Below are positions 8,054-36,799 of a DNA stretch of 37,075 nt, piece by piece. The stretch comes from Methylobacter sp. (GTDB lineage: Bacteria; Pseudomonadota; Gammaproteobacteria; Methylococcales; Methylomonadaceae), in NCBI GenBank assembly GCA_004299305.1, contig SCPZ01000112.1, positions 1 to 37,075 on the forward strand, given 5' to 3'. A program made the translations under genes and the position numbers. The notes under the pieces were generated by a model that made no database searches, was not told where the DNA came from, and was given only the letters and a program-made list of their open reading frames with translations. Every line of letters begins with the position of its first letter. Within the stretch, counting starts at the first letter, position 1.

Positions 8054-9115
8054 TTAAACACCTTTTTCGCCTCCCATTCTGTCGGTTAAATACGCTACAG
8101 CCACTGCTGGAGCGCAATCGGCTGTCGTCATATCGGACTGAATTTTATCTACCGGGAACAAATCGGAAAAATCCAGATAAGGACGCCCCAAATTCAATGC
8201 AATCTGTTTAACTAAAAACCGCCCTACTCCGGCGCCTATTAATGGGCTATTTTGTGGAAGATCATGCTTGGATAAGCAGGTTTCACAGCCGCGTTGTATC
8301 TGTTGTATTTGCTGGGCGCGGATATTTTCGGCGAATTGCTGCCAACGCGGCAATTCGTCGGGATAAAAATCACAGCCTATCATCCTAGATAACCGCCTGG
8401 CACTGGCGATAACTGTTTTTTCCGCACCATCTGCGGTGTCGGTTTGATCATGCGCCTCATTGAGTTCGCCGCAGACCCGGTAAACATCGGCCATGGTGGC
8501 GAAATACTCGGCCATCAAGCCGATTTTTTTGCCTTTATCCAGCGCTGCTTGCGTGACGGCCATTACCGCAGTCCTGACGATACCTGTATAAATCAACTCT
8601 TGAGACAGTAAACGCTGGTAATCGGTGTAACCTTCCGCCGACACTTGTCCGTCATTGAGCAACAGTATGTCGGTGGTGGTACTGCCGCAATCGACAAACA
8701 GGCCACAGCCCAACTTTTGCGCAACGAATGAGGCGCTCGCCAACCAGTTGGCGGAGGCGATGGACGCGTAATGCCTGGCTTCGATCTGCGAAGGCTTCAG
8801 GAAACCTTGCCGACCGACAAAAACCAGCATTTCAGCTCCCGGCAACAACTCAGTCATAGTTTGAATAATTTGCTTAACGCCATGATCCCGGTTATCAAAC
8901 AAATCAACCAACTCGCCGGTCATGGTCATGGCATGACAATAAGACGAACCAGCCAGTTCCTGCATAATGACGCTTACAGCGCGTTGCAGCTGATCCAACC
9001 CTTTCCATAACGGACACGGTTGCTGATAAACGGCGATAATCTCACTGGCCTTATTGATTAGCGCCGCTTTGACATGGGCGCCTCCTATATCCCAACCAAT
9101 AATATTAGATTGCAT
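8054..9115 (-). CDS. ASKHA-fold (hydantoinase/oxoprolinase-like) H4MPT-linked C1 transfer pathway protein
   Basis: 353 residues from MQSNIIGWDIGGAHVKAAL. The upstream extension to 9208 overlaps the preceding gene and has no family character, so I start at 9115, giving an 11-base overlap with the ATP-grasp gene. GWDIGGAH (7-14) is an ASKHA phosphate loop, LFVDCGSTTTDILLL near the middle is the second one, and PLIGAGVGRFL near the C-terminus fits the adenosine motif. The family is known as a conserved but uncharacterised companion of H4MPT-dependent formaldehyde oxidation genes in methylotrophs. By fold it should be an ATP-dependent kinase or hydrolase; substrate unknown. Role in cofactor synthesis is inference from neighbours. 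Confidence 0.82.
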   Translation of the reverse strand: MQSNIIGWDIGGAHVKAALINKASEIIAVYQQPCPLWKGLDQLQRAVSVIMQELAGSSYCHAMTMTGELVDLFDNRDHGVKQIIQTMTELLPGAEMLVFVGRQGFLKPSQIEARHYASIASANWLASASFVAQKLGCGLFVDCGSTTTDILLLNDGQVSAEGYTDYQRLLSQELIYTGIVRTAVMAVTQAALDKGKKIGLMAEYFATMADVYRVCGELNEAHDQTDTADGAEKTVIASARRLSRMIGCDFYPDELPRWQQFAENIRAQQIQQIQRGCETCLSKHDLPQNSPLIGAGVGRFLVKQIALNLGRPYLDFSDLFPVDKIQSDMTTADCAPAVAVAYLTDRMGGEKGV

Positions 9116-10085
9116 GGATTTCCTGTTTTGTTTGAACGGTAATGGGGCTGTTGCAAGTCGGGCTGAGTATCGGCTCGCCATACAGCATCTGTAAAACAAC
9201 CTCGGCAATATTGATACCTAAAGCATCGTATATGCCGACAAATGAAGTAGTCAGACGGGGATTTATTTCAAGCACCCATGTTTGTTCGGCGGTTTCTATC
9301 AAATCGATACCTACATAGCCCCATAACTCAGGCAAAGCACGGGCTATTTTGGCTATTACAGACTGATACGAACCAAAATCGGGCTGGTGATTCACCACAA
9401 TTTCCGCCAAATGATATTGCCGATTAACGAATTTAAAGCGCTGCAAATTGGCACACACTAACCAACCACGGCCTTGCTTGAATAAACACGAAAGACTGGT
9501 TTTTGTACCTTGAAGATGCGGCTGAATAATATATAAGCCTTTTTGCGTAGCCATCTGATCAAAATCTTGCTGCTGGGTGACAACATAACTATCCGTACAG
9601 CCCACGCCATCCACAGGCTTAATCATCCATTCACCGGCAGGATATTGATGCTCAAGCATCCGAGTAGGAACGGCGGCTATATGATGCCGATCAAGCAGTT
9701 CATAGGTCTTGAATTTGTTACCGGCAATAGCAACGGCGGTTGCAGGCGATGTCAGCAATACCTTGCTCAATGCTTCGACTGTTTGACACAGGTTTTGCAA
9801 AATACCGTCAAATTCCGGCGCTATCGGCCATACCAAATCTGATTGCCGGACTAAGCGCGCAAATTCTTCAGTGACGTCATGTTCCGGCCTGATGATAACA
9901 TTGCTTACCCCAGTCAATGCGTCAAGCCGCCAATCGAGCATTACCGTGATTTCCAGACTATTTAATCGCACCAAGTTATCGAGCAGTGCGTTAAGCATCA
10001 GGCTACCTTCCCGAGCCAGGGAATCAGGCAACTCCTGCTTATTAAAGCCGCCGCCAGCGATATACTCGAACACCAAAATTTTCAC
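9105..10085 (-). CDS. ATP-grasp protein of the H4MPT gene island
   Basis: 326 residues if started at the GTG at 10085, giving MKILVFEYIAGGGFNKQ. The open frame continues upstream to 10280, but that part translates the intergenic repeats at 10143-10227, so it is rejected. ATP-grasp features include the WMIKPVDGVGCTDS segment, which holds the ATP-binding lysine, and the metal-binding VLEINPRLTTSF near residue 285. Such enzymes form amide or peptide-like bonds through acyl-phosphates. Homologues sit in methylotroph C1 islands and I recall them as required for the H4MPT-linked pathway in Methylobacterium (orfY-type), but the substrate is unknown. No clear Shine-Dalgarno is visible before the GTG. 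It is translationally overlapped with the ASKHA gene downstream. Confidence 0.82.
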   Translation of the reverse strand: MKILVFEYIAGGGFNKQELPDSLAREGSLMLNALLDNLVRLNSLEITVMLDWRLDALTGVSNVIIRPEHDVTEEFARLVRQSDLVWPIAPEFDGILQNLCQTVEALSKVLLTSPATAVAIAGNKFKTYELLDRHHIAAVPTRMLEHQYPAGEWMIKPVDGVGCTDSYVVTQQQDFDQMATQKGLYIIQPHLQGTKTSLSCLFKQGRGWLVCANLQRFKFVNRQYHLAEIVVNHQPDFGSYQSVIAKIARALPELWGYVGIDLIETAEQTWVLEINPRLTTSFVGIYDALGINIAEVVLQMLYGEPILSPTCNSPITVQTKQEIHAI

Positions 10086-10142
10086 AATACGCAATAAACA
10101 ACTATAAAATATAACGTCATATTGTATCACCAGTTCAACGCC

Positions 10143-10227
10143 AGCTTTGCCTACATGGATATGTAGGTAAGGGGCGTGAGCAGGAGCGGAAGCTTTGCCT
10201 ACATGGATGTAGGTAAGAGGCGTGAGC
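10143..10227. repeat. Two tandem copies of a palindromic dispersed repeat
   Basis: Copy 1 (10143-10181) and copy 2 (10191-10227) both read AGCTTTGCCTACATGGAT, then a TGTAGGTAAG-type arm and a GGCGTGAGC tail; copy 1 has two extra bases in the centre. The period is 48 bases. They fill most of the 206-base spacer between the divergent ATP-grasp and HisA-like genes. A further copy is at 27464-27481. Confidence 0.8.
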
Positions 10228-10291
10228 GTTGAGCTCCGGCATTTGTAATTTTTGGAACCCAAAGCTTGCTTTGGCCTCAAACCCTATTTTT

Positions 10292-10996
10292 ATGAAAATA
10301 ATCCCGGTAATAGATTTAAAAAACGGCGTCGTCGTTCATGCTCGACAAGGCAATCGCGAGCACTATCGACCTATTAACACGGATTTATGCAAATCATCTG
10401 ATGTTTTTCAAGTTATTGACGCATTCTTGGGTGTTTATGGGTTTGATACCTTTTATATTGCAGACTTGAATGCGATTACCCATCAAGGTGACCATGATCG
10501 TTTAATCACTGAGGTACTGACTCGTTTTCCGCAAATAACATTCTGGGTAGACAAGGGTTATCAAACATATGCTGAGGATGTGCCGTTTCCAGAAAACATT
10601 CTTCCTGTTTTAGGCAGTGAATCCTACCGGAATGAAACCATTTCTGAAATAAAAGCTTATAAAAACAACTTCATCCTTTCGTTGGATTATTCAAACTCAA
10701 ATACCTTGGGTGCAGAAAGCCTTTTCTCCGACTCAACTTTGTGGCCGAAAAACATCATTATCATGACCTTGGAACGCGTAGGCAGTGACTATGGCCCCGA
10801 CTTGGAGAAGTTAACCGAGTTTTGCAAGCAATATCCGAACAAGAATTTTATTGCCGCCGGAGGAATAAGAAATAAACGGGATTTAATGGCCTTGAGTGAG
10901 GCGGGAATTCATCAAGCGCTGGTTGCCAGTGCGCTGCACTCCGGCGCCATTAAAACAAAAGATATTAAAACAACAGGCAAAAAAATACCCCGTTAA
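10292..10996 (+). CDS. HisA/HisF-like TIM-barrel protein of the C1 island
   Basis: 234 residues from MKIIPVIDLKNGVVVHARQG; the 21-codon extension upstream has no family similarity. The two HisA catalytic aspartates seem kept: Asp8 in PVIDLKNG and Asp132 in ILSLDYSNSN. Phosphate-binding loops of the barrel appear in FIAAGGIRNKRDL and LVASALHSGAI. Histidine-pathway HisA proteins are about 245 residues and lie with hisF, hisH or hisG, none of which is here. In methylotrophs a HisA-like gene accompanies the H4MPT genes and is thought to serve C1 cofactor synthesis; a phosphoribosyl or other phospho-sugar substrate is likely by fold. It is the only plus-strand gene of the island. The reading looks more AT-rich than mch. 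Confidence 0.8.
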   Translation: MKIIPVIDLKNGVVVHARQGNREHYRPINTDLCKSSDVFQVIDAFLGVYGFDTFYIADLNAITHQGDHDRLITEVLTRFPQITFWVDKGYQTYAEDVPFPENILPVLGSESYRNETISEIKAYKNNFILSLDYSNSNTLGAESLFSDSTLWPKNIIIMTLERVGSDYGPDLEKLTEFCKQYPNKNFIAAGGIRNKRDLMALSEAGIHQALVASALHSGAIKTKDIKTTGKKIPR

Positions 10997-11010
10997 GCCG
11001 GGGTATTTTT
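10981..11010. terminator. Bidirectional intrinsic terminator between the HisA-like gene and fae
   Basis: AAAAATACCCCG (10981-10992) and CGGGGTATTTTT (10999-11010) pair perfectly around a six-base loop, giving a GC-rich stem with a T-run on either strand. It overlaps the HisA-like stop codon (10994-10996) and lies 25 bases beyond the fae stop, so it serves both converging genes. Confidence 0.88.
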
Positions 11011-11035
11011 AACATTCTTAGTAACTAATTAAATC

Positions 11036-11545
11036 TTAGTTAGCAGCGAATGGATGTACAGCAGTACCTTTAGCTGCAACAACTTCAGCAGCAGTAGGAG
11101 TACCGGCAACAGCACGTTTCAGAGCTTCTTTAGTCGCTTCGTAGTTGTATTGTTGGATTTTAGCATCGTCTTCTGCAGCCCAGTGAATGAATACACCAAC
11201 TGATACGAATAAATCATCAGCTTCAGCAGCAGGAATTGTGCCGTCTTCAACACAATCAGCAACAGCCATAGCAACACCGCGTTGTGCTGGGCCAAACATT
11301 TGAACAGCTTGTTTTGCGCCTTTGATTGTTACTTTGTTGAACATAACAGTAGATGGTTTAACCATCAGGTTAGGTGCAACAACAGCCAACAAGCTTGAAA
11401 AGCCGTCTTTGTTGTTAGTCAAGCAGTTTGCGAATGCAGTTTCAGCAGCTGAACCACGTGGTCCAACCATCAAATCGATGTGAGCAACTTCGTTGCCTTC
11501 ACCAACTAAAGATTCGCCAACGCATAATTTATTGATTTTAGCCAT
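11036..11545 (-). CDS. fae: Formaldehyde-activating enzyme
   Basis: Catalyses condensation of formaldehyde with (dephospho-)tetrahydromethanopterin to methylene-H4MPT, the entry to the C1 oxidation pathway in the cytoplasm. The 169 residues start at [20 protein letters not shown] and match the Methylobacterium enzyme closely throughout: [19 protein letters not shown] with His22 as the likely catalytic base, [45 protein letters not shown] and the HPFAAN tail. An in-frame extension to 11629 is rejected because AGGGGA lies at ideal spacing before the ATG at 11545. The 124-base leader holds two palindromes. It is the last gene of the mch-side minus-strand cluster but probably has its own promoter, as high expression is usual. 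Confidence 0.97.
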
Positions 11546-11594
11546 GCTTAATATCCCCTGTGAAGAAAAAAATGAAAAAATTGAATCTACTATC

Positions 11595-11609
11595 GACATT
11601 ATTAATGTC
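11595..11609. promoter_or_regulatory. Candidate operator in the fae leader
   Basis: GACATT (11595-11600) and AATGTC (11604-11609) form a perfect palindrome around ATT. On the minus strand it lies about 50-65 bases before the fae ATG, near a TTGTTA-17-ATTAAT stretch that could be a promoter. Its half-sites (ACATT/AATGT) are the same as those in the MarR leader palindrome at 7981-7996, with one base less in the spacer. Confidence 0.45.
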
Positions 11610-11649
11610 CCCTTATTTGTTTTTAACAAATTCCTTTTGAAGCCCTATT

Positions 11650-11674
11650 AGTAACAGTACACAGTATTGTTACT
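11650..11674. terminator. Hairpin over the CitG-like stop codon
   Basis: AGTAACA (11650-11656) pairs with TGTTACT (11668-11674). The right arm includes the stop codon of the CitG-like gene. There is no clear U-tract in the minus direction, so it may be a weak terminator or an activator site upstream of the fae promoter. Confidence 0.35.
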
Positions 11675-12518
11675 GATTAAGATCCTCTAGAAATGCGGTG
11701 AATACTGTCGCCACAATCATGTCAGCTGTCGTACCCGGATTTATACTACAAAACTTAAGCTCCTGATCCAGAGAAAAAAGCAAGGGCTTTATTTGCTCGG
11801 GATTATCAGTTTTAAACAGCTCCTCACTGAGTTGAGCCATTCTTGTTGCTACCATCTCAGAGTACTGATCTCCGTATTTCCTTTCGATATGACTGTCGGG
11901 AAACTGGCTCAGCATGTCTGCATACACTGCCACTGCCGCCCAATTCCGGTCACCCCATCGATCAAGTCCAATATTATACCTTAAAAGTAGGAAATTAAAA
12001 ATATCTTGGTAATCAGTTGTGTATTGAAACGCGATACGGTCTTTTACGCTGGCTATTTTCATTGCCTCAAGCAATGTAACCGACGCTTTTTCATTGACAT
12101 CTTGCTCGTCCGAGTCACCCAAACCACCTGGGGAGGCAAGTCTTATGGCCTTAAAGACCCAATCGGCATCCTCTATCGTTGATTCGATAAGAACCTTGCT
12201 TATCGCCTGCCTTAACGTTAAATCTGAAGACTTATGATTGATTGCCTGAATCAATGGCGCACAAAGCAAAATAATACCCAGGTTGGTGTTACACCCTACC
12301 GCCTCGCGCGTTGCCTTAACCGCATAATAGATTTTTTCACCCAAGGAATAATCTGGATTGCAAAGAGGCTCCGCACTGACATTGGCGCTGATCCTGAAAT
12401 CGGCCACGGTCATGTCATGACCATCCGCATAAACACTGACATTGCCGGGCTTAAATGCCTGCACGTCAACCTCGCAGGCTTGCCGATAAAGTTCGCTGAG
12501 TTGCTTTGGGGAAATCAT
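11670..12518 (-). CDS. CitG/MdcB-like (triphosphoribosyl-dephospho-CoA synthase family) protein of the C1 island
   Basis: 282 residues of the all-helical CitG family. Conserved stretches are FKPGNVSVY (about 22-30), AVGCNTNLGIILLCAP, LASPGGLGDSDEQDV and, near the C-terminus, SINPGTTADMIVATVF. True CitG makes the prosthetic-group precursor of citrate lyase from ATP and dephospho-CoA. No citrate or malonate lyase gene is present, whereas homologues of this gene are regular members of methylotroph H4MPT clusters (orf17-type, as I recall). A role in adding a phosphoribosyl-type group during cofactor synthesis is inferred from family chemistry. Its ATG shares one base with the stop of the upstream RimK-like gene (TGATG), so the two are coupled. 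fae follows 124 bases downstream. Confidence 0.85.
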   Translation of the reverse strand: MISPKQLSELYRQACEVDVQAFKPGNVSVYADGHDMTVADFRISANVSAEPLCNPDYSLGEKIYYAVKATREAVGCNTNLGIILLCAPLIQAINHKSSDLTLRQAISKVLIESTIEDADWVFKAIRLASPGGLGDSDEQDVNEKASVTLLEAMKIASVKDRIAFQYTTDYQDIFNFLLLRYNIGLDRWGDRNWAAVAVYADMLSQFPDSHIERKYGDQYSEMVATRMAQLSEELFKTDNPEQIKPLLFSLDQELKFCSINPGTTADMIVATVFTAFLEDLNQ

Positions 12519-13423
12519 CAGGCGGCGACAGTCTGTTTATGCATCTTACGGGTGATTAAATCATCTACCATCAACTCGGCGATATTTACGTCGCAAACGC
12601 TCTCCAAGCCTTTCCATGCCGGGATGCTGTTAACTTCAATGATTGTGCAGCGTCCTTCCCTATCCTTAATAATATCGACTCCGGCATAATCCATCGCCAA
12701 TGCGGTCGTCGCCTTAACGGCCAAATCAACCATTTCAGGCTCTAAATCAATCAGCTCACAACTCGCGCCACGGGCAACGTTATTCAACCAGAATTTTCCA
12801 CGCCTGCGCATTGCGGCAACCGCTTTACCGTTAATCACAAAAACGCGATGATCGGAAAAACCGGCACCTTCGCAATGAACGAAGCGTTGCAGGTAATAAA
12901 CGCCGTGACTGTCGGTCAACCAAAATAAATCGGTAGATTTTTCGATGCGGCGTATACCTTCGCCTTGAGAACCGAACAAAGGCTTGCTGATCAGTAGATT
13001 GCCTTGCTTTAACTCGGTTTCGGCAATCCTTAACGCTTCATCCCGGTCACGCAACACCCAAGTCATCGGCGTCGGCAACCCTGCATTATGCAGCAAAAAA
13101 CTGGTCATCGCCTTATCGACACTGCGCTCTACCGCATGAGCGTCATTGTAGACAGGAATTCCCATCGCCTTTAACGCATGTAAAAAATCCAGGTACAACA
13201 CGACTTCCTCAAGCGAACCTCCGGGGACGCCGCGCACAAAAGCTGCATCGGGCAGCGCGTATTCAAAGCCCGGAATAAAGACCGGCTGCCGACCGGGCTC
13301 GATTACAAACCGGCATTCAGTCAACGAAACATAGTCACAGCTATAGCCACGACCGGCAAAGGCCAAGCTTAATTGTTTGCCATGCCAACCGGGATCATCG
13401 GTAAAAATTGCTATACGACCCAC
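12518..13423 (-). CDS. RimK/MptN-like ATP-grasp ligase of the C1 island
   Basis: 301 residues, starting with GTG (MGRIAIFTDDPGWHG). ATP-grasp architecture: pre-ATP domain to about 95, then the VYNDAHAVERSVDKAMT segment, ISKPLFGSQGEGIRRI as the glycine-rich ATP loop, YYLQRFVHCEGAGFSDHRVFV, and the metal-binding DIIKDREGRCTIIEVNSIPAWKGLE. RimK relatives in methanogens (MptN, CofF) add glutamate to methanopterin or F420. Here a ligase acting on the H4MPT side chain or a related C1 cofactor is the obvious proposal, though bacterial dephospho-H4MPT lacks parts of the archaeal tail, so the substrate is open. Only 9 bases separate it from mch upstream, and it overlaps the CitG-like gene by one base. 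Confidence 0.85.
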   Translation of the reverse strand: MGRIAIFTDDPGWHGKQLSLAFAGRGYSCDYVSLTECRFVIEPGRQPVFIPGFEYALPDAAFVRGVPGGSLEEVVLYLDFLHALKAMGIPVYNDAHAVERSVDKAMTSFLLHNAGLPTPMTWVLRDRDEALRIAETELKQGNLLISKPLFGSQGEGIRRIEKSTDLFWLTDSHGVYYLQRFVHCEGAGFSDHRVFVINGKAVAAMRRRGKFWLNNVARGASCELIDLEPEMVDLAVKATTALAMDYAGVDIIKDREGRCTIIEVNSIPAWKGLESVCDVNIAELMVDDLITRKMHKQTVAA

Positions 13424-13432
13424 GCCTACGCT

Positions 13433-14416
13433 CTACGCCCCAAACGATTGGTCCAACAAGGCATTATCCAGCTTGCCTGCACGGAAACTCTTGCCGGATT
13501 CTACCGCAGTCACAATCACGCTGGCCGGACTGAACAACATCGCGTCGATTTTGAAGAAGTCGTATTCATACTGCTTGAAGATGTCCGCAAACGGTTTGCC
13601 GTAATCTTTAGACGTTGAACTCGGCAATTCTTTAGCCAATTTTTCAGCTTCTTCATCGCTACCTTTGACAAAAATATGCACCTGACCGGCAAACAAAATC
13701 GCATCATTGGTGCGCCCCATGGCTTTGACAAAATTCGGATGCGGAGGACAAATTGGAGCGCTGCCGCTGCCGTCGATAATATTTTCCAATGGAAAATGCA
13801 GGGCGTGAGCCTTGTGCATAGCCACTTCGAGCACCCTGGCAACCACTTGCACGCCACCGGCCAGACTGCTGGTTGGGGTAACGATGATAGTCAGTTTGGA
13901 TGGATCGACCTTACAGGCGGCGGCGACTTTTTCAACGATTTCAACCGGCGGAACCGCATCGTTTTCAATTACTAAAACAGTGGAGTCATTGCTATCTTGA
14001 TAATCCAACTCCTTGTATAACTCTTCAACCGGCTCCTGATTGCCGTCCTTCAACTTGGTTGCCATAGCCCGAGCAGGGCCTGAACCTAATGCGTAATATT
14101 TCTCATGAGACAGACTCCAGCCCGCATATTGACTGCCTAAGCAGCCCAGCACCGGATTGCCGGTATGGACATTCACAGACAACGGCCAATTATCCGTATA
14201 AGAGCTGTGGCTGATGGTTACCGTACCCATGCCGCCTAGACAGATTTCGGCAATAATGCGCCCCGCCTCGATTCCGCCCGGCACTTTAATACCTGCGTCA
14301 ATGATAGTGCAGCCATTGGCTAACCTTTCCACGCCTAAACGTAGTTTATCGGCATTATCGAGTAAATGCCGCACCAAGGGCTGGGTCAATTTGTTAACGC
14401 TGGCTGTATATTCCAT
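13433..14416 (-). CDS. mch: Methenyl-tetrahydromethanopterin cyclohydrolase
   Basis: Interconverts methenyl-H4MPT and formyl-H4MPT, the middle step of formaldehyde oxidation to formate, in the cytoplasm. The 327-residue product from [15 protein letters not shown] is full length. Recognisable stretches are [32 protein letters not shown], the [11 protein letters not shown] loop, [32 protein letters not shown] and [18 protein letters not shown]. The ATG at 14416 is preceded by AGAAGG about 11 bases upstream; an in-frame TTG at 14425 is too close to that site. The gene overlaps the end of the upstream ATP-grasp gene by 23 bases and is followed closely by the RimK-like gene, indicating one operon. 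mtdB and fhc genes are not in this window. Confidence 0.97.
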
Positions 14417-15530
14417 GTCGATCAAAACCTTCTAGTTTGTTAATGATAAGTTGTTGTCTAGTCAGCAGCTGTTCCACTACAGACTGTAAGTTTTTTTGGC
14501 GGGCAATAATACTGCACAATGGCTGTCCTGCGCGACACATATTGCCGGGTTTGGGCAAATCCATACACCAAAACGGCCATTCGAAATGAGCGGGAATGAT
14601 TAAATCATGCTCCGCATAAACGACTTGATAGCCCGTAAGGCCCACTAGCAGCTGCGCCTTACCGCGTTGGGCGAGTAAAGCCCCTTCCCCACATGCTTGA
14701 ATATGCCTGTGCAGCAAATCCTCATCATATAACTGCATACTGGCAGAAGGCCGAGGATTGATTTCCAGCACATAGATACACTCATCCGCCTGGATAAAAT
14801 CCAAGGAATTTAGACCTCTTAGCGCAAACGCCGCTACCATTTGTTTTAACCAGTCTGTTATCGCTGCTTTGTGGGCATCCGACAGGTCGGCGCTATTAAC
14901 CACGCCTGAAAAAACAAACTCCTCGGTCTCGCTTAATCGAACCGGCCATTGGCTATTAAAACCGACGACCTGAACCTGCCGCCCGTCGGCTAGAAACAGC
15001 GCCGAATGAAGCGTACCGGCTTGAAATTTTTGCCAGTAAACCGATGCGGCTGCGCCGTCACCAGCATGATAACGTTTTATCCCGACACCGCCCTGCCCTT
15101 GCATAGGCTTACGCAGCCAATCGCCAACGCAATCCGGCGCGCTAAAAACAACCTCGGGATGGGGAATATTTAACCGGTCCAACGTCGAAAAAAACACCGG
15201 CTTATCCTGTTGCCTTGCAAAGACCTCAGGATGATTACCCAGCATAATCAAGCGACTGTCCAGATAACCCAGGCTTTCCAAATAGCCTTCAAAACCGCTG
15301 CCGTAAATAACATGAGTAACGGCATAACGTTCGATAAAATAATCTACAGCAGGCGCCAAATCTTGTTCGGACAATGACGCTACCTGACGAAAATCTTCCG
15401 CATAGTCTTGCGTGTCGAGATCGGCAAACAAGTCAATAACCAATGGCTTCAAGCCCGCGTTTTTTACGGCCTGCGCCAGCATACGTCCTGAACTGGCGAC
15501 TATCAATAGCGTTTCCACGCTAATTCTCAT
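14394..15530 (-). CDS. ATP-grasp protein upstream of mch
   Basis: 378 residues. The N-terminal Rossmann-like part contains [19 protein letters not shown], followed by an ATP-grasp domain with [21 protein letters not shown] (lysine and glycine-rich ATP loop), [19 protein letters not shown] and the metal-binding [14 protein letters not shown]. It is the orf5-type companion of mch in methylotroph C1 islands (from memory). Such enzymes ligate a carboxylate to an amine using ATP; the C1-cofactor substrate is unknown. The ATG at 15530 directly abuts a 9-base tandem repeat, leaving no normal ribosome site; GTG at 15518, preceded by GAGA, is an alternative start. It overlaps mch by 23 bases. Confidence 0.83.
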
Positions 15531-15531
15531 C

Positions 15532-15585
15532 CACGAAAAGCACGAAAGACACGAAAGACACGAAAGACACGAAAGACACGAAAAA
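15532..15585. repeat. 9-base tandem repeat (CACGAAAGA units)
   Basis: Six units in a row: one CACGAAAAG, four CACGAAAGA, one CACGAAAAA. It begins two bases from the presumed ATG of the ATP-grasp gene, so its transcript covers the position of the ribosome site of that gene. Copy number may vary between strains. Confidence 0.9.
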
Positions 15586-15658
15586 AAATCAGTATGTTGT
15601 ATTGCACAGACATTCGCTCTTTTGATGACGATTTACAACTTGGTATCTCTTTAAATAT

Positions 15659-15684
15659 TTTCGTGCTTTTCGTGTCTTTCGTGG
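15659..15684. repeat. Inverted partner of the CACGAAAGA repeat
   Basis: The other end of the same 155-base spacer carries three units in inverted orientation (complement CCACGAAAGA, CACGAAAAG, CACGAAAA), one base short of the beta-RFAP synthase stop. With 15532-15585 it can form a long stem enclosing about 75 bases. A related copy is at 37007-37024. Confidence 0.75.
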
Positions 15685-15685
15685 A

Positions 15686-16666
15686 CTAACTGCGGTTTTT
15701 AGAATGATCAACAAAAACATCCCCGCCACTGTTCCGAGCACTGGCCACAACAAAACTCAACTTATCAAAATGCGCAAACTTCAGCCGGGCCTGATGAGTG
15801 ATTGCTTCAGCCAGTTCAACACCATCAATAGCGCAAAAACCGGTCGGCCCCCATGAAGTTTGCCCGACAGCCACCGCACCTTGCCGCTCCAGCCATTGCA
15901 TAGCTTCCGCAACCTCGGGACTGGTAAAAACGCCGCCTTGAGCCGAAGAGAAATGCTCGCCAACCGAACGTTGCAACTGGGTAATCACATCGCCGAATTT
16001 AATGATGTCGTTTTCAGCCACCGCAGGCAGCCCCTGCATCAACAATAAATAACATAAGCGCGAGGCCTCCTGCTCCGGGAAAGGCGGCAGCTCCTTAAAA
16101 GCCTGTATTTCCTGCTGACCGTGCAGGCCTTGGCCGCGCTGATCAAACACCAAAATAAACCGCCATTGGTCCGGGACATCCATATGCGCCAGTACCGGTG
16201 GGGTAATGGTTTTTTCGCCACGACCGCCATCGACGACCAAGCCGCCCCGCTCAAAAACACCGATACCGATACCTGAGCGCAAGCCCCGATCAGTTACGGC
16301 GGCAATTTCACGCACGCTAAGCCCCAAGCCGTAAAACTCATTAAGCGCCGCGCCGATTGCCAGCGACATTTGCGTACCCGAGCCCAAGCCCACGTGTTCC
16401 GGGATCGCATTTTCGATGGTTATATTGATTTTATCGGATACTTGTAAGGCCTCACACAGCAGGGATACGCATCTTTCCGCCCGCTGTGCGGCAAAACCGG
16501 TAATGGTGAGCTGCTCGGCATCGGTTACAGACAGGCGAGTGCTGATTTCATTAAGCGCAACGCCGATGCTGCCGAAATGTCGGCCTAATGATCCGCTTAA
16601 ATCAATAAAGCCCATGTGCAATCGGGCGGGGGCAATGACTGAGACTTTAGAATGTTGAACTATCAA
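15686..16666 (-). CDS. Beta-ribofuranosylaminobenzene 5'-phosphate synthase homologue (MptG-like)
   Basis: GHMP-fold enzyme expected to condense 4-hydroxybenzoate or p-aminobenzoate with PRPP, releasing CO2 and PPi, the first committed step of (dephospho-)H4MPT synthesis. 326 residues match the family. The start APARLHMGFIDLSGSLGR is diagnostic, EHVGLGSGTQMSLAIGAAL (about 89-107) is the GHMP glycine-rich phosphate loop, LRSGIGIGVFERGGLVVDGG (about 128-148) and GQTSWGPTGFCAI are further hallmarks. It is the first gene of the minus-strand C1 series ending at fae, separated from the ATP-grasp gene by the 155-base repeat-bearing spacer. The upstream spacer (16667-16859) carries another palindrome. 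Presence of this gene strongly supports endogenous H4MPT production. Confidence 0.93.
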   Translation of the reverse strand: MIVQHSKVSVIAPARLHMGFIDLSGSLGRHFGSIGVALNEISTRLSVTDAEQLTITGFAAQRAERCVSLLCEALQVSDKINITIENAIPEHVGLGSGTQMSLAIGAALNEFYGLGLSVREIAAVTDRGLRSGIGIGVFERGGLVVDGGRGEKTITPPVLAHMDVPDQWRFILVFDQRGQGLHGQQEIQAFKELPPFPEQEASRLCYLLLMQGLPAVAENDIIKFGDVITQLQRSVGEHFSSAQGGVFTSPEVAEAMQWLERQGAVAVGQTSWGPTGFCAIDGVELAEAITHQARLKFAHFDKLSFVVASARNSGGDVFVDHSKNRS

Positions 16667-16859: not shown

Positions 16860-17522
16860 CTAAGCTCGGATCGCATTGCTTAACTGGGCCAAATCACCGA
16901 CCATCAGTTTGCATAGTTCAAGCGTCAGCGGATCGACCTGCGCTATCGACGGTATCAACACCGAAACGGCTCCCGCCCTGGATGCCGCCACAATACCGGC
17001 ATGAGAATCCTCAATCACCAAACACCGCTTAATGTCCACTTGCAACAACTCGGCGGCTTTTAAAAAAACATCCGGCTCCGGCTTGCCGTGCTGAACGTGA
17101 TCGCGACTGACGATGATTGAAAAAACATCCTTGATCCCGGCCAGTTCGAGACATTCCAGCGCATTAACCGTCCGACTGTTAGTCGCCAGGCAATAGGGGA
17201 TTTTTTGCCGAATCAGCAAGTCCAACAATCCGGTAAAACCGTGTTTGATTGTTATGCCGTGGACATTAACGTAATCACGCCAACAATCGCTGCTTAGTCG
17301 CTTAAAGGTTTGCAGGTTAAATTCGGCTCCGCAATACTCAATCAGTTTCAGCTCTATATCCTGGTAATGCAGTCCTGTCAGCGTCAAGCAAAAGTCTGTG
17401 GAAAGATCATAGCCCATCGCCCTTGCCGCCTGTTGCCAAGCGATGCTGTAGGTGGTCTCGGTATCTAAAACCAAGCCGTCCATATCGAAAATAACCGCCG
17501 AAAAATCAGTTAACTTCAACAC
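16860..17522 (-). CDS. HAD-superfamily phosphatase/phosphomutase (subfamily IA)
   Basis: 220-residue haloacid dehalogenase-like hydrolase. Motif I is VIFDMDGLVLDTE with nucleophile Asp13 and acid/base Asp15; motif II is CLATNSRT; the motif III lysine is in HVQHGKPEPDVF; motif IV is CLVIEDSHAGIVAA. The helical cap between motifs I and II is of the beta-phosphoglucomutase/phosphoglycolate phosphatase type. The substrate is a small phosphorylated metabolite and cannot be told from sequence. It overlaps the upstream nucleotidyltransferase gene by seven bases, so the two are probably made together and may act in one pathway. It precedes the C1 island on the same strand, which makes a link to cofactor synthesis possible but unproven. 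Confidence 0.88.
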   Translation of the reverse strand: MLKLTDFSAVIFDMDGLVLDTETTYSIAWQQAARAMGYDLSTDFCLTLTGLHYQDIELKLIEYCGAEFNLQTFKRLSSDCWRDYVNVHGITIKHGFTGLLDLLIRQKIPYCLATNSRTVNALECLELAGIKDVFSIIVSRDHVQHGKPEPDVFLKAAELLQVDIKRCLVIEDSHAGIVAASRAGAVSVLIPSIAQVDPLTLELCKLMVGDLAQLSNAIRA

Positions 17523-18445
17523 TGAACAACCTTGATATATTCCCCATGCGCCTCACGACTGGAGCCGACCACGATGCGTTTAACGCCTTGCGCCGATTGT
17601 TCCAGCACCCCTGATACTTCCACTAACTCACCGCTAAGTGCCTGCCCGGTATAAGTCGCCGTAAAACTGACGATAGACCTAATCTGCTGATGGGCTATCT
17701 TAAATTCAGCCGGATAATCGAAAGCATGAGTATCGTCGCTTACCCTGCACTGCAAAGTAATCGTCCCGCATTTTTGATATACAACAGCCTCAGGACTTAG
17801 ATCATGATCGATAAAATTCAAATCGAATTTCCGCCCGTTAATCACGGCCTTGTTACATTTACGCCGTTCATGCCAGACATATTCATCAAAGCTCAAATCG
17901 CATAAACGGCGCTGGTAAGATTGCCGCCAATCCAGGGCGTTTAAATTCTGCAAATATCCCAATTCGATAAGCTCGCGGGTAATAACCCTGCATTGGTGAA
18001 AAACATCCCTGCCGTAACAAACCAAATCAATATCCGAACCCTGGCTTTGCACGCCGATAAGAATGGAACCCGTGACCCCGGTTTGAGCCAAATCCAACCC
18101 ATATTGCCCAAACAATTCACACAACCGGAACAAATCCCGCTCGACCGCGTCATGTCGGCTTGATTGCATAAGCTGCTGCAATCTATGTTTAGGCTGGTGA
18201 TGTTTAACGATTTTGTCTACGGCAACCGCATGCAAATGCGCATCTAAAACCGGGGAATAATGCAGATAATCGGGATACTGTTGCTGTAGGAGGTGATTGG
18301 CTTGTTCCGTCGCAACCTTTTTCCAGCCGGAAGGCGTAAACACATAACGTAAAAAACACAGCGCTTTGCCGCCTTCCAGTCCCTGCTCTACTACCGCAAA
18401 AATAAGCCCTTCAGCGGTTTCAATAAAATCCTTGGCAAAAAACAT
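17516..18445 (-). CDS. Pol-beta-type nucleotidyltransferase domain protein
   Basis: 309 residues from MFFAKDFIETAEGLIF. The core signature of the Pol-beta nucleotidyltransferase fold is at 126-140: GSILIGVQSQGSDIDLV, with Asp138 and Asp140 as metal ligands and FDLNFID further on as a possible third strand. The first 95 residues (LCFLRYVFTPSGWKKVATEQ, then HLHAVAVDKIVKHHQPKHRL) form a separate N-terminal region, and the C-terminal 90 residues are beta-rich (LSGELVEVSGVLEQS). It resembles predicted archaeal-type nucleotidyltransferases in layout, but I cannot name it. The frame extends to an ATG at 18484, rejected because that stretch is a terminator-like hairpin. It overlaps the HAD gene by seven bases. 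Confidence 0.78.
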   Translation of the reverse strand: MFFAKDFIETAEGLIFAVVEQGLEGGKALCFLRYVFTPSGWKKVATEQANHLLQQQYPDYLHYSPVLDAHLHAVAVDKIVKHHQPKHRLQQLMQSSRHDAVERDLFRLCELFGQYGLDLAQTGVTGSILIGVQSQGSDIDLVCYGRDVFHQCRVITRELIELGYLQNLNALDWRQSYQRRLCDLSFDEYVWHERRKCNKAVINGRKFDLNFIDHDLSPEAVVYQKCGTITLQCRVSDDTHAFDYPAEFKIAHQQIRSIVSFTATYTGQALSGELVEVSGVLEQSAQGVKRIVVGSSREAHGEYIKVVQC

Positions 18446-18463
18446 GCTAAAACAACCAACCAA

Positions 18464-18482
18464 GGCGCGGCAGAACCGCGCC
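18464..18482 (-). terminator. Terminator-like hairpin after the membrane-protein gene
   Basis: GGCGCGG and CCGCGCC pair perfectly around a five-base loop, followed on the minus strand by a T/G-rich tract (TTGGTTGGTTGTTTT). It lies 10 bases beyond the membrane-protein stop and 18 bases before the nucleotidyltransferase ATG, so it probably ends the upstream transcript at least partly. Confidence 0.5.
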
Positions 18483-18492
18483 ATCCTGCCGA

Positions 18493-20656: not shown

Positions 20657-21628
20657 TTAGTTGATTGCTCCCCCGCAACTGCTGCCCTGGCCTGCCGTAC
20701 AGCCATAGCAATGTTGCATCGTTGCAATGGTTTTGCCCATTAATTCAGATAGCTGAGTCAGGTGTATTTTCTGCTTGCCGCCTAAAGGCAGTTTCAGCAT
20801 TTGATTAAAATCACAATCATAAACCTTACCCTGCCAATCCACGCTCAAGGTGTTCCTGCACATGACCTTGTCCAGGTTAGACGCATGAAAATTATCCTTG
20901 AGCAATTGCATATACTCATCAAACCGACCGGTACTGAGCAAAACGCCGCCAAAACGCTGTATGGGTAAATTAGTCATCGCAAATAAACGGTTAAACACGA
21001 TACCGTAATGCTCGTGCAAATGTTGTTTATAACTGCGCTCTAAGGCCTGTTGTTCAGGCGGCAAGGTTGCGCCTTGCGGATTGAAAACCAGGCTCAACGA
21101 TAGCCCAGTATCCGCTTTACCGTAGCCCAGCTCATTTAATAGCTGCAAAGCCTTGATGCTGGCGTTAAAGGTCCCTTTACCGCGTTGTTTATCGACATTT
21201 TCTTTAAGATAGCAGGGTAATGACGCGACGATTTCAACCCGCTTTTCTGCCAGAAATCCGGCCATGTCCTCAAAGCCATTTTTCAGCAAAATAACCAGGT
21301 TGCAACGGTCGATAACCGTTAAGCCGCGATTCCTTGCCTGAGTCACCAAATAGCGAAAATGCGGATTCATTTCCGGCGCTCCGCCGGTTAAATCCAGGGT
21401 ATGAAGCTCATGTTTATCGATAAAACTCAAAACCTGATCCATAGTGGCTTTGTCCATTAACTCAGTTCGTTTAGGCCCGGCATTAACATGACAATGGCTG
21501 CAACTCAGGTTACATAAATAACCTAAGTTAACTTGCAAAATTTCCAGTTTGTTGCGGGTAATGACTGGGAAATCTGAGCTTTTTAAATACGGTAGCGAAT
21601 CGATCATAACATTACAAGTCCACGGCAT
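20657..21628 (-). CDS. arsS: Arsenosugar biosynthesis radical SAM protein
   Basis: Radical-SAM enzyme believed to transfer the 5'-deoxyadenosyl group of SAM onto dimethylated arsenic, giving the dimethylarsinoyl-adenosine precursor of arsenosugars. The radical-SAM cluster motif is Cys39-Cys43-Cys46 in GYLCNLSCSHCHVNAGP, followed by LDLTGGAPEMNPHF. The C-terminal half has Cys-rich pieces (VMCRNTLSVDWQGKVYDCDFNQML and HCYGCTAGQGSSCGGAI), a SPASM-like auxiliary region typical of the ArsS family. 323 residues is the expected length. The start at 21628 lies one base beyond the parE stop, with AGGG inside the end of parE as ribosome site; the ATG at 21607 is an alternative. Expression may therefore be coupled to parE. 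Confidence 0.92.
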   Translation of the reverse strand: MPWTCNVMIDSLPYLKSSDFPVITRNKLEILQVNLGYLCNLSCSHCHVNAGPKRTELMDKATMDQVLSFIDKHELHTLDLTGGAPEMNPHFRYLVTQARNRGLTVIDRCNLVILLKNGFEDMAGFLAEKRVEIVASLPCYLKENVDKQRGKGTFNASIKALQLLNELGYGKADTGLSLSLVFNPQGATLPPEQQALERSYKQHLHEHYGIVFNRLFAMTNLPIQRFGGVLLSTGRFDEYMQLLKDNFHASNLDKVMCRNTLSVDWQGKVYDCDFNQMLKLPLGGKQKIHLTQLSELMGKTIATMQHCYGCTAGQGSSCGGAIN

Positions 21629-21629
21629 T

Positions 21630-23522
21630 TCACCCTATATCCGCCAAGTTCCCCTTGGTTTCCAGCCACACTTTCCGGTCTTGCGAGCGTTTTTTAGCCA
21701 GCAATAAATCCAACTGACCGCTGGTATCGTCATCGTCGCTTACCGTTAACTGGACCAGTCTGCGGGTATCCGGGTTCATGGTGGTTTCCCTAAGCTGGCT
21801 GGGGTTCATTTCTCCCAGGCCTTTAAAGCGCTGCACATTAATCTGGCCTTTGAGTTTTTCGGCTGCAATACGATCCAATACCCCTAACCTTTCCGCCTCA
21901 TCCAACGCATAGAACACCCGCTTACCGACATCGATCCGGTACAAAGGCGGCATCGCGACAAAAACGTGACCGGCTTCCACCAGCGCCTTGAAATGTTGGT
22001 AAAACAAGGCGCAAATCAGGGTCGCGATATGGTTGCCGTCCGAATCCGCATCGGCCAGGATGCACACCTTGCCGTAACGCAGGTTCTGCAAGTCGGAAGA
22101 ACCCGGCTCTATACCCAAGGCCACGGCAATGTCATGGACTTCCTGCGAAGCCATCACTTGGCTGGATTCGACTTCCCAGGTATTAAGAATCTTGCCGCGC
22201 AACGGCATAATTGCCTGAAAATCCCGTTCCCGCGCCTGCTTGGCCGAACCGCCTGCCGAGTCCCCTTCGACCAGGAACAATTCGGTGCGGGATAAATCCT
22301 GCGCCGAGCAATCGGCCAGCTTGCCCGGCAGTGCTGGGCCCGAGGTGATTTTCTTGCGGATGATTTTCTTGTTGGAACGTAAGCGCTTTTGCGCGCTGGA
22401 AATAATGATTTCGGCGATTTTCTCGCCCTCGGCGGGATTTTGGTTCAACCACAAACTGAAGCTGTCTTTAGCCACGCCGGACACAAAGGCCACGCATTCA
22501 CGGGAACTGAGCCGTTCCTTGGTTTGCCCTGAAAACTGTGGGTCTTCCAATTTAACCGACAGCACAAAATGGCAGTTTTCCCAAACATCCTCCGGGGCGA
22601 CTTTAACGCCGCGCGGCAGGATATTCCTGATGTCGCAAAACTCGCGCATCGCTTCGGTCAGGCCTGCACGCAAGCCATTGACATGGGTTCCGCCTTGCGC
22701 CGTCGGCACCAGGTTCACATAACTTTCGGTCAGCACTTCCGCCGGGTTTTCAATCGCCCAGACGATTCCCCATTCAACGGCTTCATGATTAGCCGCCATG
22801 CTGCCCATAAACGGCTGTTCCGGGCTGTAGTCAATATCGCCGATACGGTCGAGCAAATATTCCTTGAGGCCGTCCTGGTAACACCAAACATAGTCTTCGT
22901 CGGTTTGATCGACTTTCAGCGATATTTTTAAGCCGGGACATAACACCGCCTTGGCCCGCAGCACATGCTTAAGCTTTATGACCGATACCTTGTTGGAATC
23001 GAAATATTTTTCATTCGGCCAGAAGCGGACGCTCGTTCCGGTATTATTCTTGCCGACCGTGCCGGTCTCAGTCAGTTCGGTTTGTTTTTCGCCGTCGGCA
23101 TACGCCATCTGGTAAATTTTGCCGTTTCTTTTGACTTCTATTTCCAGCTTTGCCGACAAGGCGTTGACGACAGAGACGCCCACGCCATGCAAGCCGCCGG
23201 AAAACTGGTAGTTCTTATTGGAAAACTTACCGCCCGCATGGAGCTGGGTCAAAATCACCTCGACGCCGGGAATGCCTTGTTCCGGGTGTATATCGACCGG
23301 CATCCCCCGGCCATTATCGCTGACCAGCACCGAACCGTCTTTATACAAGACCACATCAATTGACGAAGCATGACCCGCCATCGCCTCGTCAACACTGTTA
23401 TCAACAACCTCCTGCACCAAATGGTTGGGCCGAGTGGTGTCCGTGTACATACCGGGACGCTTGCGCACCGGCTCCAGTCCGCTTAAAACTTCAATTGCCG
23501 ACGCGTTATATTCGTTACTCAT
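21630..23522 (-). CDS. parE: DNA topoisomerase IV subunit B
   Basis: ATPase subunit of topoisomerase IV, which decatenates replicated chromosomes. Order of domains: GHKL ATPase (about 1-220, with VQEVVDNSVDEAMAGH and the GLHGVGVSVVNALS loop), transducer, then TOPRIM beginning at EGDSAGGSAKQARERDFQ (419 onward) with ILADADSDGNHIATL, and the C-terminal QRFKGLGEMNPSQLRETT segment. It resembles ParE rather than GyrB: 630 residues, no GyrB-type insertion of about 170 residues, and LNTWEVESSQVMASQEVHDIAVALGI as in E. coli ParE. It is divergent from xseB across 81 bases. parC is not in the window. It runs directly into arsS. Confidence 0.96.
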   Translation of the reverse strand: MSNEYNASAIEVLSGLEPVRKRPGMYTDTTRPNHLVQEVVDNSVDEAMAGHASSIDVVLYKDGSVLVSDNGRGMPVDIHPEQGIPGVEVILTQLHAGGKFSNKNYQFSGGLHGVGVSVVNALSAKLEIEVKRNGKIYQMAYADGEKQTELTETGTVGKNNTGTSVRFWPNEKYFDSNKVSVIKLKHVLRAKAVLCPGLKISLKVDQTDEDYVWCYQDGLKEYLLDRIGDIDYSPEQPFMGSMAANHEAVEWGIVWAIENPAEVLTESYVNLVPTAQGGTHVNGLRAGLTEAMREFCDIRNILPRGVKVAPEDVWENCHFVLSVKLEDPQFSGQTKERLSSRECVAFVSGVAKDSFSLWLNQNPAEGEKIAEIIISSAQKRLRSNKKIIRKKITSGPALPGKLADCSAQDLSRTELFLVEGDSAGGSAKQARERDFQAIMPLRGKILNTWEVESSQVMASQEVHDIAVALGIEPGSSDLQNLRYGKVCILADADSDGNHIATLICALFYQHFKALVEAGHVFVAMPPLYRIDVGKRVFYALDEAERLGVLDRIAAEKLKGQINVQRFKGLGEMNPSQLRETTMNPDTRRLVQLTVSDDDDTSGQLDLLLAKKRSQDRKVWLETKGNLADIG

Positions 23523-35579: not shown

Positions 35580-36799
35580 GGCCGAGCTCCTTCCAGCAAG
35601 GCTTGCCAGCCCTCTCGGGTACGATAACCCGGCCAGGGGCTTGGCCTTATCGGCGAGTTGGAAGCAAACACCTGCTCGAACTGTCCGTCGGGGCGCACTT
35701 TGCCTACCCGCATCATCTTCCATAAATGGCGGGTGTCCGCATCGACCGCCGCTATTCCCGAGGGGCTCTTGATGCTCTGCCGTAACAAAGCCGAATTGAC
35801 CCGGCCCGGCTCACTGGAGTTCACATCCTGCACCGCTTGCGCCCATAAATTCACCCCCACATAGGCGGCTTCCACCGGGTCGCTGGTGACCCGGTCAGCG
35901 CCAAAACGAGCCTGGTACGCGCTGACAAAACGATGATTTTCCGCCCCCGGTAAGGACTGAAAGTAACTCCAGACCCCGTAATGCCGGAGCAATTGCCCGC
36001 CATTCCAAGCCAGCATTCCGCTTTCTTCCACGCTGAAAGAAATCAACGGCAAATCGCCAAGCCCCGCCTTAACCAAAGCGGAAAAAAATACGGCATTGCT
36101 GTCGCCGTTAAGCGTGTTGAGCACTACGTCAGGCTTTTTCAGGGTAATATCTTCAATGATTGCGGCCAGATCGTCTCCACCCAGAGGCAGATAGCGTTCG
36201 CCAAGGATTTCCCCCCCGGCGGCATTGATCAGGTCGGTTATGATGATATTAGCGGTATGGGGAAAAATATAATCCGAACCCACTAAATAAATACGCGACC
36301 CAAATTCCTGCGTGGCCCAACGGGTTCCCGGCACGATTTGCTGATTGGGTGCGGCGCCGGTGTACAGGATATTGGCCGATTGTTCAATGCCTTCATACTG
36401 CACCGGATAAAACAACAGGTGCCGGTGTTTTTCGACCACCGGTTTCACAGCCTTGCGGCAGGCCGATGTCCAACAACCGAACAGGGCGCTGACCTGCTCT
36501 TGTTCAATCAGCCGTTCGGCTTCTGCGGCAAATACTTCCGGGTCCGACTTGCCGTCGGCCACTAGCATTTCAACCGGCAGCCCAAGCAATCCGCCCTGCG
36601 CATTGATTTCATCGACCGCCAAGCGCACCGCATCCACCAGCGGTTTCTCGCTGACCGCCATAGTGCCGGTCAGCGAATGCAATACGCCGATTTTGATCGG
36701 CGTTACCGCAATCGGGTAATGCTGCCTGACCATGAACACGGCCATCATCAGGAAGCCGGCTAGCCCCAGTACCGTAATGACTTTAAGGTGGTTTTTCAT
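35576..36799 (-). CDS. Membrane-anchored urea/amide-type periplasmic binding protein coupled to a sensor kinase
   Basis: 407 residues. An uncleaved-looking hydrophobic segment at about 7-24 without a lipobox cysteine suggests a signal anchor or a Sec signal. The rest is a type I periplasmic binding fold: IKIGVLHSLTGTMAVSEKPL, AVRLAVDEINAQGGLLGLPV, EQVSALFGCWTSACRKAVKP, HLLFYPVQYEGIEQS and VLNTLNGDSNAVFFSALVKAG. These are hallmarks of the UrtA/FmdD/AmiC branch (urea, short-chain amides). No ABC permease or ATPase gene is adjacent; instead it is translationally coupled to a hybrid kinase. A role as ligand-sensing co-receptor is inferred. Ligand unknown: urea, amides or branched-chain amino acids are candidates. 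Confidence 0.85.
   Translation of the reverse strand: MKNHLKVITVLGLAGFLMMAVFMVRQHYPIAVTPIKIGVLHSLTGTMAVSEKPLVDAVRLAVDEINAQGGLLGLPVEMLVADGKSDPEVFAAEAERLIEQEQVSALFGCWTSACRKAVKPVVEKHRHLLFYPVQYEGIEQSANILYTGAAPNQQIVPGTRWATQEFGSRIYLVGSDYIFPHTANIIITDLINAAGGEILGERYLPLGGDDLAAIIEDITLKKPDVVLNTLNGDSNAVFFSALVKAGLGDLPLISFSVEESGMLAWNGGQLLRHYGVWSYFQSLPGAENHRFVSAYQARFGADRVTSDPVEAAYVGVNLWAQAVQDVNSSEPGRVNSALLRQSIKSPSGIAAVDADTRHLWKMMRVGKVRPDGQFEQVFASNSPIRPSPWPGYRTREGWQALLEGARP

What the first reader, a model, noticed from the sequence alone, without database searches (positions are those of the whole stretch)
8054..16666. H4MPT cofactor island with three ATP-grasp proteins and unassigned enzymes
Seen: fae, mch and a beta-RFAP synthase homologue sit with three separate ATP-grasp proteins (9105-10085, 12518-13423, 14394-15530), a CitG-like protein, a HisA-like barrel and an ASKHA-fold protein. 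Known: homologues travel with methylotroph C1 genes, and several are needed for the pathway, but their reactions are largely undefined. Inference: the mix of phosphoribosyl-type, ligase and kinase folds describes a cofactor-assembly line (H4MPT or methylofuran side chain) whose steps can be proposed one by one.
Basis: partly seen in the sequence, partly recalled or inferred. Interest (0 to 1): 0.7.

Follow-up and report, generated by a model that had tools for sequence, protein, structure and literature searches.

The report
Two-cofactor assembly island in a methanotroph
This is the well-known cluster of genes with which methane- and methanol-eating bacteria build two carbon-carrying cofactors; comparing its relatives suggests what one unexplained member (a CitG-like enzyme) does and points to an overlooked partner gene beside it.

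Summary
In detail: all nine genes are at the stated places. It is the known bacterial 'archaeal-like' C1 island (orf4-orfY-mch-orf5-orf7-fae-orf17-orf1-orf9), here from a Methylobacter-like genome. The claim that the reactions are largely undefined is outdated: two of the three ATP-grasp proteins correspond to MyfA and MyfB, published methylofuran glutamate ligases; the third is MfnD-like; the ASKHA protein is MfnF-like. Two members stay unassigned: Orf17 (HisA-like, furan branch) and Orf7 (CitG-like). My evidence puts Orf7 in the methanopterin branch: among 185 genomes of the class it occurs in exactly the 25 with mch; in archaea DUF447 (Orf20) lies beside it in 36 of 39 loci; in control genomes it follows MptG, not MfnB. 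I propose that Orf7 attaches the second, alpha-linked ribose using ATP, as CitG does. A nucleotidyltransferase gene outside the finding (17516-18484) has relatives adjoining Orf7 in 17 of 40 selected Thermoproteota regions and a Caldisericota operon, hinting at CitG/CitX-type logic. Island: ordinary. Orf7 reaction and partner: testable predictions. In passing: MfnB in this genus is mostly fused to a receiver domain.

The parts
8054..9121 (-). Orf9 / MfnF-like furan transferase (ASKHA fold); methylofuran branch
   Evidence: TIGR03123 330 bits (cut-off 244); NF040623 MfnF 149 bits (below its cut-off 520)
9105..10085 (-). Orf1 / MfnD-like ATP-grasp, probably tyramine/tyrosine:glutamate ligase (first glutamate of methylofuran)
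   Evidence: NF040722 MfnD 113 bits (below cut-off 400), ATP-grasp_3 plus preATP-grasp_3; overlaps orf9 by 17 bases; published as orf1/mfnD
10292..10996 (+). Orf17, HisA-like barrel, convergent with fae; methylofuran core, reaction unknown
   Evidence: PF00977 E 1e-21, TIGR00734 103 bits (below cut-off); Asp9 and Asp133 invariant in 28 of 28; needed for methylofuran
11036..11602 (-). fae, formaldehyde-activating enzyme
   Evidence: TIGR03126 245 bits, over cut-off
11670..12518 (-). Orf7, CitG-like; proposed ATP-dependent alpha-(phospho)ribosyl transferase of methanopterin synthesis
12518..13423 (-). MyfB / Orf5, RimK/MptN-type glutamate ligase that lengthens the methylofuran polyglutamate
   Evidence: TIGR00768 169 bits over cut-off, MptN 208 bits below its cut-off; place between mch and orf7 as published
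13433..14425 (-). mch, methenyl-H4MPT cyclohydrolase (start TTG 14425 or ATG 14416)
   Evidence: TIGR03120 447 bits
14394..15530 (-). MyfA / OrfY, ATP-grasp adding the second glutamate of methylofuran
   Evidence: ATP-grasp_3 E 8e-17, part weakly like MfnD, as described for MyfA; present in 21 of the 25 regions fetched from relatives
15686..16666 (-). Orf4 / MptG, beta-RFAP synthase
   Evidence: TIGR00144 179 bits over cut-off; NF040726 208 bits below its cut-off 328
16860..17522 (-). HAD phosphatase, overlaps the next gene by 7 bases; candidate for removing a phosphate from the cofactor arm (weak)
   Evidence: HAD_2 E 1e-27; same neighbours in L139, L158, L177
17516..18484 (-).
   Evidence: NTP_transf_2 in 9 of 10 family members, best E 7e-10; relatives adjoin Orf7 in archaea and Caldisericota

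Best explanation
The island is the known bacterial gene set for two C1 cofactors plus two enzymes that use them (Fae, Mch). Methylofuran arm (published reactions, assigned here by family and gene order): Orf1/MfnD-like joins tyramine or tyrosine to glutamate, MfnF couples this to the furan, MyfA adds the second glutamate, MyfB the rest; Orf17 acts early on the furan core by an unknown, probably HisA-type acid/base step. Methanopterin arm: MptG makes the aryl C-riboside from PRPP (established for the family). INFERRED: Orf20/DUF447 (on another contig) opens that ribose to the ribityl chain, and Orf7 adds the second, alpha-linked ribose to it. Orf7 would work like CitG: the oxygen attacks C1 of the ribose of ATP, expels adenine and inverts the beta bond to an alpha bond; direct displacement on PRPP (alpha) would give the wrong, beta product. 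The triphosphate left on C5 is then trimmed (dephospho-H4MPT) or used to form a phosphodiester. Rough odds: island identity 0.95, Orf7 in the pterin branch 0.8, this exact reaction 0.5.
Against: No enzyme assay or orf7 metabolite data exist here; I found none in the papers I could search. Orf7 misses the CitG equivalog cut-off by far (17 of 272 bits). Haloarchaea (20 of 20 loci) keep Orf7 beside DUF447, and 16 of 16 genomes searched have MptG-like proteins, although they are described as folate users, so the module is not strictly tied to H4MPT. In bacteria Orf7 sits next to MyfB, a methylofuran gene. DUF447 as the ring-opening reductase rests on a recalled flavin-reductase-like fold only. Assignment of MyfA, MyfB, Orf7, Orf17 rests on family and order, not on direct alignment to the M. 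extorquens or M. flagellatus proteins.
Confidence: 0.6

Rival explanations
1. Orf7 belongs to the methylofuran branch (for example as a helper of MyfB or of the furan core) and not to methanopterin synthesis.
For: In bacteria orf7 is directly downstream of myfB and near mfnF and orf17; all genes of the M. extorquens cluster were reported essential on methanol.
Against: Control genomes Haloferax and Sulfolobus have CitG-like and DUF447 but no MfnB; archaeal neighbours are DUF447 and, in four loci, AfpA-like and Orf19.
Confidence: 0.15
2. Orf7 transfers a (phospho)ribosyl group from ATP, but to a different acceptor or for another C-riboside product that MptG, DUF447 and CitG-like proteins make in haloarchaea and Sulfolobus as well; the tie to H4MPT is one use of a wider module.
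For: 16 of 16 haloarchaeal genomes searched also have MptG over cut-off; 20 of 20 haloarchaeal loci pair Orf7 with DUF447. Sulfolobales are said to hold a folate analogue with features of methanopterin (PMC3261824, passage).
Against: In 185 bacterial genomes Orf7 occurs only with mch.
Confidence: 0.2
3. The whole thing is only the already published island with nothing to add: Orf7 is a degenerate paralogue or a protein-modifying CitG relative without a role in small-molecule synthesis.
For: The island and its gene names are in print.
Against: Strict conservation of a set of residues and of gene presence argues against decay; no acyl-carrier-protein domain was hit among the 30 window proteins scanned with Pfam, though frames under 100 residues were not scanned.
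Confidence: 0.05
4. The NTase at 17516-18484 is an RNA-directed nucleotidyltransferase (NTase plus OB-fold) and its place next to mptG here and Orf7 elsewhere is incidental.
Against: Adjacent to Orf7 in 17 of 40 and within the fetched region in 24 of 40 selected Thermoproteota regions; touching or overlapping mch-myfB-orf7-NTase frames in Caldisericota L138; in 185 bacterial genomes present in 5, all with mch.
Confidence: 0.35

Closest known systems
Bacterial 'archaeal-like' H4MPT/methylofuran island (Methylorubrum extorquens, Methylobacillus flagellatus, Methylosinus trichosporium)
   Same: Same genes and the same core order mch-orf5-orf7-fae-orf17, with orfY, orf1, orf9 as reported
   Different: Here orf4 and orfY adjoin mch without the mtdB-like gene seen in a relative (L039), and an NTase-HAD pair lies upstream of orf4
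Methylofuran glutamate ligases MyfA and MyfB
   Same: ATP-grasp folds, gene positions, MptN/RimK likeness of MyfB and partial MfnD likeness of MyfA
   Different: No direct alignment to the characterised proteins was made
CitG (citrate lyase) and MdcB (malonate decarboxylase) triphosphoribosyl-dephospho-CoA synthases
   Same: Pfam family CitG, and the fold of the archaeal relative 3h9p; shared motifs as recalled for CitG
   Different: Far below the CitG equivalog cut-off; no citrate lyase or malonate decarboxylase domain among the 30 window proteins scanned; neighbours are methanopterin and methylofuran genes
CitX / MdcG phosphoribosyl-dephospho-CoA transferases
   Same: Nucleotidyltransferase encoded next to a CitG-like gene; one of 10 NTase family members comes near MdcG (E 0.03, NCBIfam; 0.18, Pfam), both far below cut-off
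   Different: No significant sequence match; extra N-terminal part and OB-fold; acceptor would be a small molecule, not an acyl carrier protein

Membership tests
Bacterial H4MPT/methylofuran island | mch-orf5-orf7-fae in this order with orf17 next to fae | tested here: met
   order in print
Fae | NCBIfam TIGR03126 over cut-off | tested here: met
   244.9 vs 118.05 bits
Mch | NCBIfam TIGR03120 over cut-off | tested here: met
   446.9 vs 228.8 bits
MptG (beta-RFAP synthase) | subfamily TIGR00144 over cut-off | tested here: met
   179 vs 113.5 bits
MptG (beta-RFAP synthase) | equivalog NF040726 over cut-off | tested here: not met
   208.3 vs 328 bits; so filed as the family, not as the equivalog
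MfnF | equivalog NF040623 over cut-off | tested here: not met
   148.8 vs 520 bits; TIGR03123 (H4MPT-linked C1 protein) is met, 330 vs 244
MfnD | equivalog NF040722 over cut-off (9105-10085) | tested here: not met
   113 vs 400 bits; MfnD-like only
MptN | equivalog NF040720 over cut-off (12518-13423) | tested here: not met
   208 vs 350 bits; RimK family TIGR00768 met, 169 vs 143
MyfA / MyfB | orthology to the characterised M. flagellatus / M. extorquens proteins | not tested
   reference proteins were not on hand; inferred from fold and gene order
MyfA / MyfB | glutamate ligation onto methylofuran | not testable with these tools
   needs enzyme or mutant work
CitG superfamily | Pfam PF01874 over gathering score | tested here: met
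   221 vs 27 bits
CitG superfamily | fold of the family | tested here: met
CitG proper | equivalog TIGR03125 over cut-off | tested here: not met
   17.3 vs 272.3 bits
CitG proper | transfer of triphosphoribose from ATP | not testable with these tools
   needs enzyme assay
HisA | equivalog TIGR00007 over cut-off (Orf17) | tested here: not met
   56.6 vs 229 bits; genome has two far stronger His_biosynth hits at C102
CitX / MdcG | profile match of the NTase to MdcG | tested here: not met
   MdcG E 0.18 and 0.032 in 1 of 10 members, far below cut-offs; no CitX family was listed
Pol-beta-type nucleotidyltransferases | NTP_transf_2 profile and G-x2-G-S ... S-D-x-D | tested here: met
   9 of 10 members match at E up to 1, best E 7.4e-10, motif residues invariant in 10 of 10; the window protein alone scores 20.8 vs cut-off 21

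The most novel reading that the evidence does not exclude
The distal arm of methanopterin is built with the logic of the citrate-lyase prosthetic group: CitG-like Orf7 transfers 5-triphosphoribose from ATP onto the ribityl chain with inversion to the alpha bond, and the NTase (window 17516-18484 and its archaeal family) plays the CitX role, using that triphosphate to form the phosphodiester that carries hydroxyglutarate in archaeal H4MPT. Bacteria that own the NTase (this organism and 4 of 24 other mch-positive genomes sampled in the class) would then make an H4MPT with a charged phosphodiester arm, unlike the dephospho-H4MPT of Methylorubrum.
Probability: 0.25. Interest if true: 0.85.

Novelty: new member of a known kind. 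Interest (0 to 1): 0.5.

Why it matters
The genes for most steps of the non-pterin half of methanopterin were listed as unknown in the 2011 survey I saw (PMC3087415, passages: an estimated seven unknown proteins). A concrete reaction and donor for Orf7, and a candidate partner, would make two of these steps testable by gene deletion and mass spectrometry, in the pathway behind both methane formation and bacterial methane/methanol oxidation.

Tried and rejected

Literature: ten searches, open-licence PMC only. No listed paper joined CitG-like proteins or this NTase to methanopterin, and DUF447 with methanopterin gave 0 papers. The classic papers on these islands were not read, so 'not in print' is not claimed. 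orf7 in PMC7391723 (passages) is a different gene of the same name (beside pqq genes).

Limits of counts: genomes of the genome search are samples and related genomes are not independent. The 40 Thermoproteota regions are 40 of the 96 genomes with a hit, taken from the top of the score list, one region per genome (G452 in that stretch was left out), so not random; in the small loci of Archaeoglobi, Methanomicrobia and Altarchaeum (L201-L206, about 1.5 kb flanks) no Orf7 adjoins the NTase. The NTase is absent from 18 of 25 Orf7-bearing archaeal genomes: all 16 haloarchaea plus G289 and G293, and from 20 of 25 mch-positive genomes of the class. The Orf7 alignment holds the window and 49 of 79 non-redundant sequences. 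L087 (the fifth MfnB-REC fusion) was dropped from the selection test because my motif did not pick it up.
Full report
What is there. The window is contig C133 (1-37075) of a 4.49-Mb genome in 144 contigs. Orf7 is 86% identical to that of a Methylobacter metagenome bin (L152), so the source is a Methylobacter-like methanotroph (inference). On the minus strand from 18484 down to 8054 lie NTase, HAD phosphatase, mptG, myfA, mch, myfB, orf7, fae, then (plus strand) orf17, then (minus) orf1/mfnD-like and orf9/mfnF. Several genes overlap or touch (orf9/orf1 by 17 bases, orf7/myfB by 1, NTase/HAD by 7), as in co-transcribed sets (inference).

The island is a known kind. The order mch-orf5-orf7-fae-orf17 is printed for Methylosinus (PMC3615186, passages). 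In 25 regions fetched from 24 other genomes of the class, mch-myfB-orf7-fae is kept in 22; L059 is cut by a contig end and L049/L060 are one genome with the genes on two contigs. myfA is found in 21 and orf17 in 15 of the 25 regions. In a relative an mtdB-like gene (named by eye from its sequence) lies between mptG and myfA (L039); here and in G136 mptG and myfA adjoin.

Published reactions. PMC8141765 (abstract, introduction, results, discussion and part of the methods read) reports that a myfA (orfY) mutant accumulates methylofuran with zero or one glutamate, a myfB (orf5) mutant the form with two, that overexpressing myfB gives up to 40, and that purified MyfB makes polyglutamate; an orf17 mutant lacks methylofuran but has methenyl-dH4MPT. 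It assigns Orf9 to MfnF and notes that several strains have a second ATP-grasp protein closer to MfnD (orf1). This maps onto the three ATP-grasp proteins here: 14394-15530 = MyfA, 12518-13423 = MyfB, 9105-10085 = MfnD-like. The mapping rests on family scores and order, not on alignment to the reference proteins. The parts of that paper that I read do not analyse Orf7.

Orf7 follows methanopterin. In 185 genomes of the class, mch rings in 25 and the Orf7 protein in the same 25 and no other. DUF447 (Orf20) is over its cut-off in 25, of which 24 are the same genomes; the miss (G070) is 78% complete and the extra (G008) 75%. In this genome Orf20 lies on contig C34 in the string afpA-orf19-orf20-mfnB. 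Among 14 control genomes MptG and DUF447 ring in M. jannaschii, Haloferax, Sulfolobus and Methanosarcina, CitG in these four plus E. coli (which has true CitG, recalled), mch in three, MfnB in two. Of the 25 archaeal genomes among these that I searched whole, all have an MptG match and 24 are over the cut-off; the exception is G292.

A possible partner. The gene 17516-18484 was outside the finding. Alone it only grazes NTP_transf_2 (20.8 bits, cut-off 21), but 9 of 10 family members match this profile (best E 7e-10) and the S-D-x-D acids are invariant in 10 of 10. Relatives adjoin Orf7 in L133 (Thermoprotei) and in L138 (Caldisericota), where mch, myfB, orf7 and the NTase form touching or overlapping frames. 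In Thermoproteota 96 of 200 genomes have it, often several copies. In 40 regions from the top of that list Orf7 is present in 24 and within 300 bases in 17; mch is in 7 of the 40; L270 (mptG, orf20, orf19) and L279 (mfnD-like, myfB, mfnB, mfnF, orf17, mch) hold other genes of the two pathways without Orf7. In the 185 genomes of the class it occurs in 5, all mch-positive (about 3e-5 by hand, relatedness ignored). Of 25 Orf7-bearing archaeal genomes 7 have it and none of the 16 haloarchaea. Against this: 20 of 25 mch-positive bacteria lack it, it was seen upstream of mptG in only 3 of 18 loci, with short flanks, and its OB-fold could mean an RNA substrate. I give the CitX-like role 0.25.

Orf17. 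Asp9 and Asp133, which match the two catalytic aspartates of HisA (recalled), are invariant in 28 of 28 sequences including two archaeal ones, as are Gly191 and Gly192; neighbours in those two archaeal loci are mfnF and, nearby, mfnB. So it is most likely an active barrel acting on a phosphorylated furan-core precursor (inference); the reaction stays open.

Side finding. MfnB in this genome is fused to a receiver domain (PF00072, E 2e-27). Of 6 genomes of the genus 5 have the fusion; none of 24 mfnB genes read in other genomes of the class has it. In at least 14 genomes of other genera in the 101-genome family sample (match list cut short) a receiver domain 48-68% identical to the fused one ends an open frame of 542-881 residues about 2.2 kb downstream of mfnB on the same strand, which suggests that a deletion joined mfnB to the tail of a hybrid histidine kinase (the kinase part was not tested). 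Between 4 of the 5 fusions dN/dS of the receiver part is 0.08-0.19 in 6 pairs, so it is under selection. By eye the phosphoacceptor Asp is kept in 4 of 4, but the switch Lys is Arg in 3 of 4, so signalling may be altered.

Verdict. The island is ordinary and known. The added value is a branch assignment and a specific, refutable reaction for Orf7, a candidate partner, and the MfnB-receiver fusion.

Noticed in passing
L007 (G000:C34) 8965-10011, other contig of the same genome: MfnB, first enzyme of the furan core, is fused to a C-terminal response-regulator receiver domain; fusion in 5 of 6 genomes of the genus, receiver part under purifying selection in the 4 fusions compared.
   Followed up: partly
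20 haloarchaeal loci among L135-L195: Haloarchaea, described as folate users, keep Orf7 next to DUF447 in 20 of 20 loci, and 16 of 16 genomes searched have an MptG-like protein over cut-off: they may make an unrecognised C-riboside or methanopterin-like compound.
   Followed up: partly
window 16860-18484: HAD phosphatase and NTase overlap and lie upstream of mptG; same pair in Methylococcales loci L139, L158, L177, but no NTase upstream of mptG in Methylobacter L152.
   Followed up: partly
L138 10535-11581: A Caldisericota genome has a second, divergent Orf7-like gene near its mch-myfB-orf7-NTase operon, next to a molybdenum-cofactor-type guanylyltransferase-like frame (naming by eye).
   Followed up: no
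window 20657-21628: Radical SAM protein with DUF3641 (arsenosugar-type family, name recalled) followed by a topoisomerase/gyrase B-type gene at 21630-23522.
   Followed up: no
window 32808-35723: Large hybrid sensor kinase (dCache, HAMP, PAS, HisKA, HATPase, receiver).
   Followed up: no
Thermoproteota loci L243-L282: In many of these regions NTase family members stand in groups of 2-3 copies, often in opposite orientation and beside Orf7; the reason for several copies is unknown.
   Followed up: no
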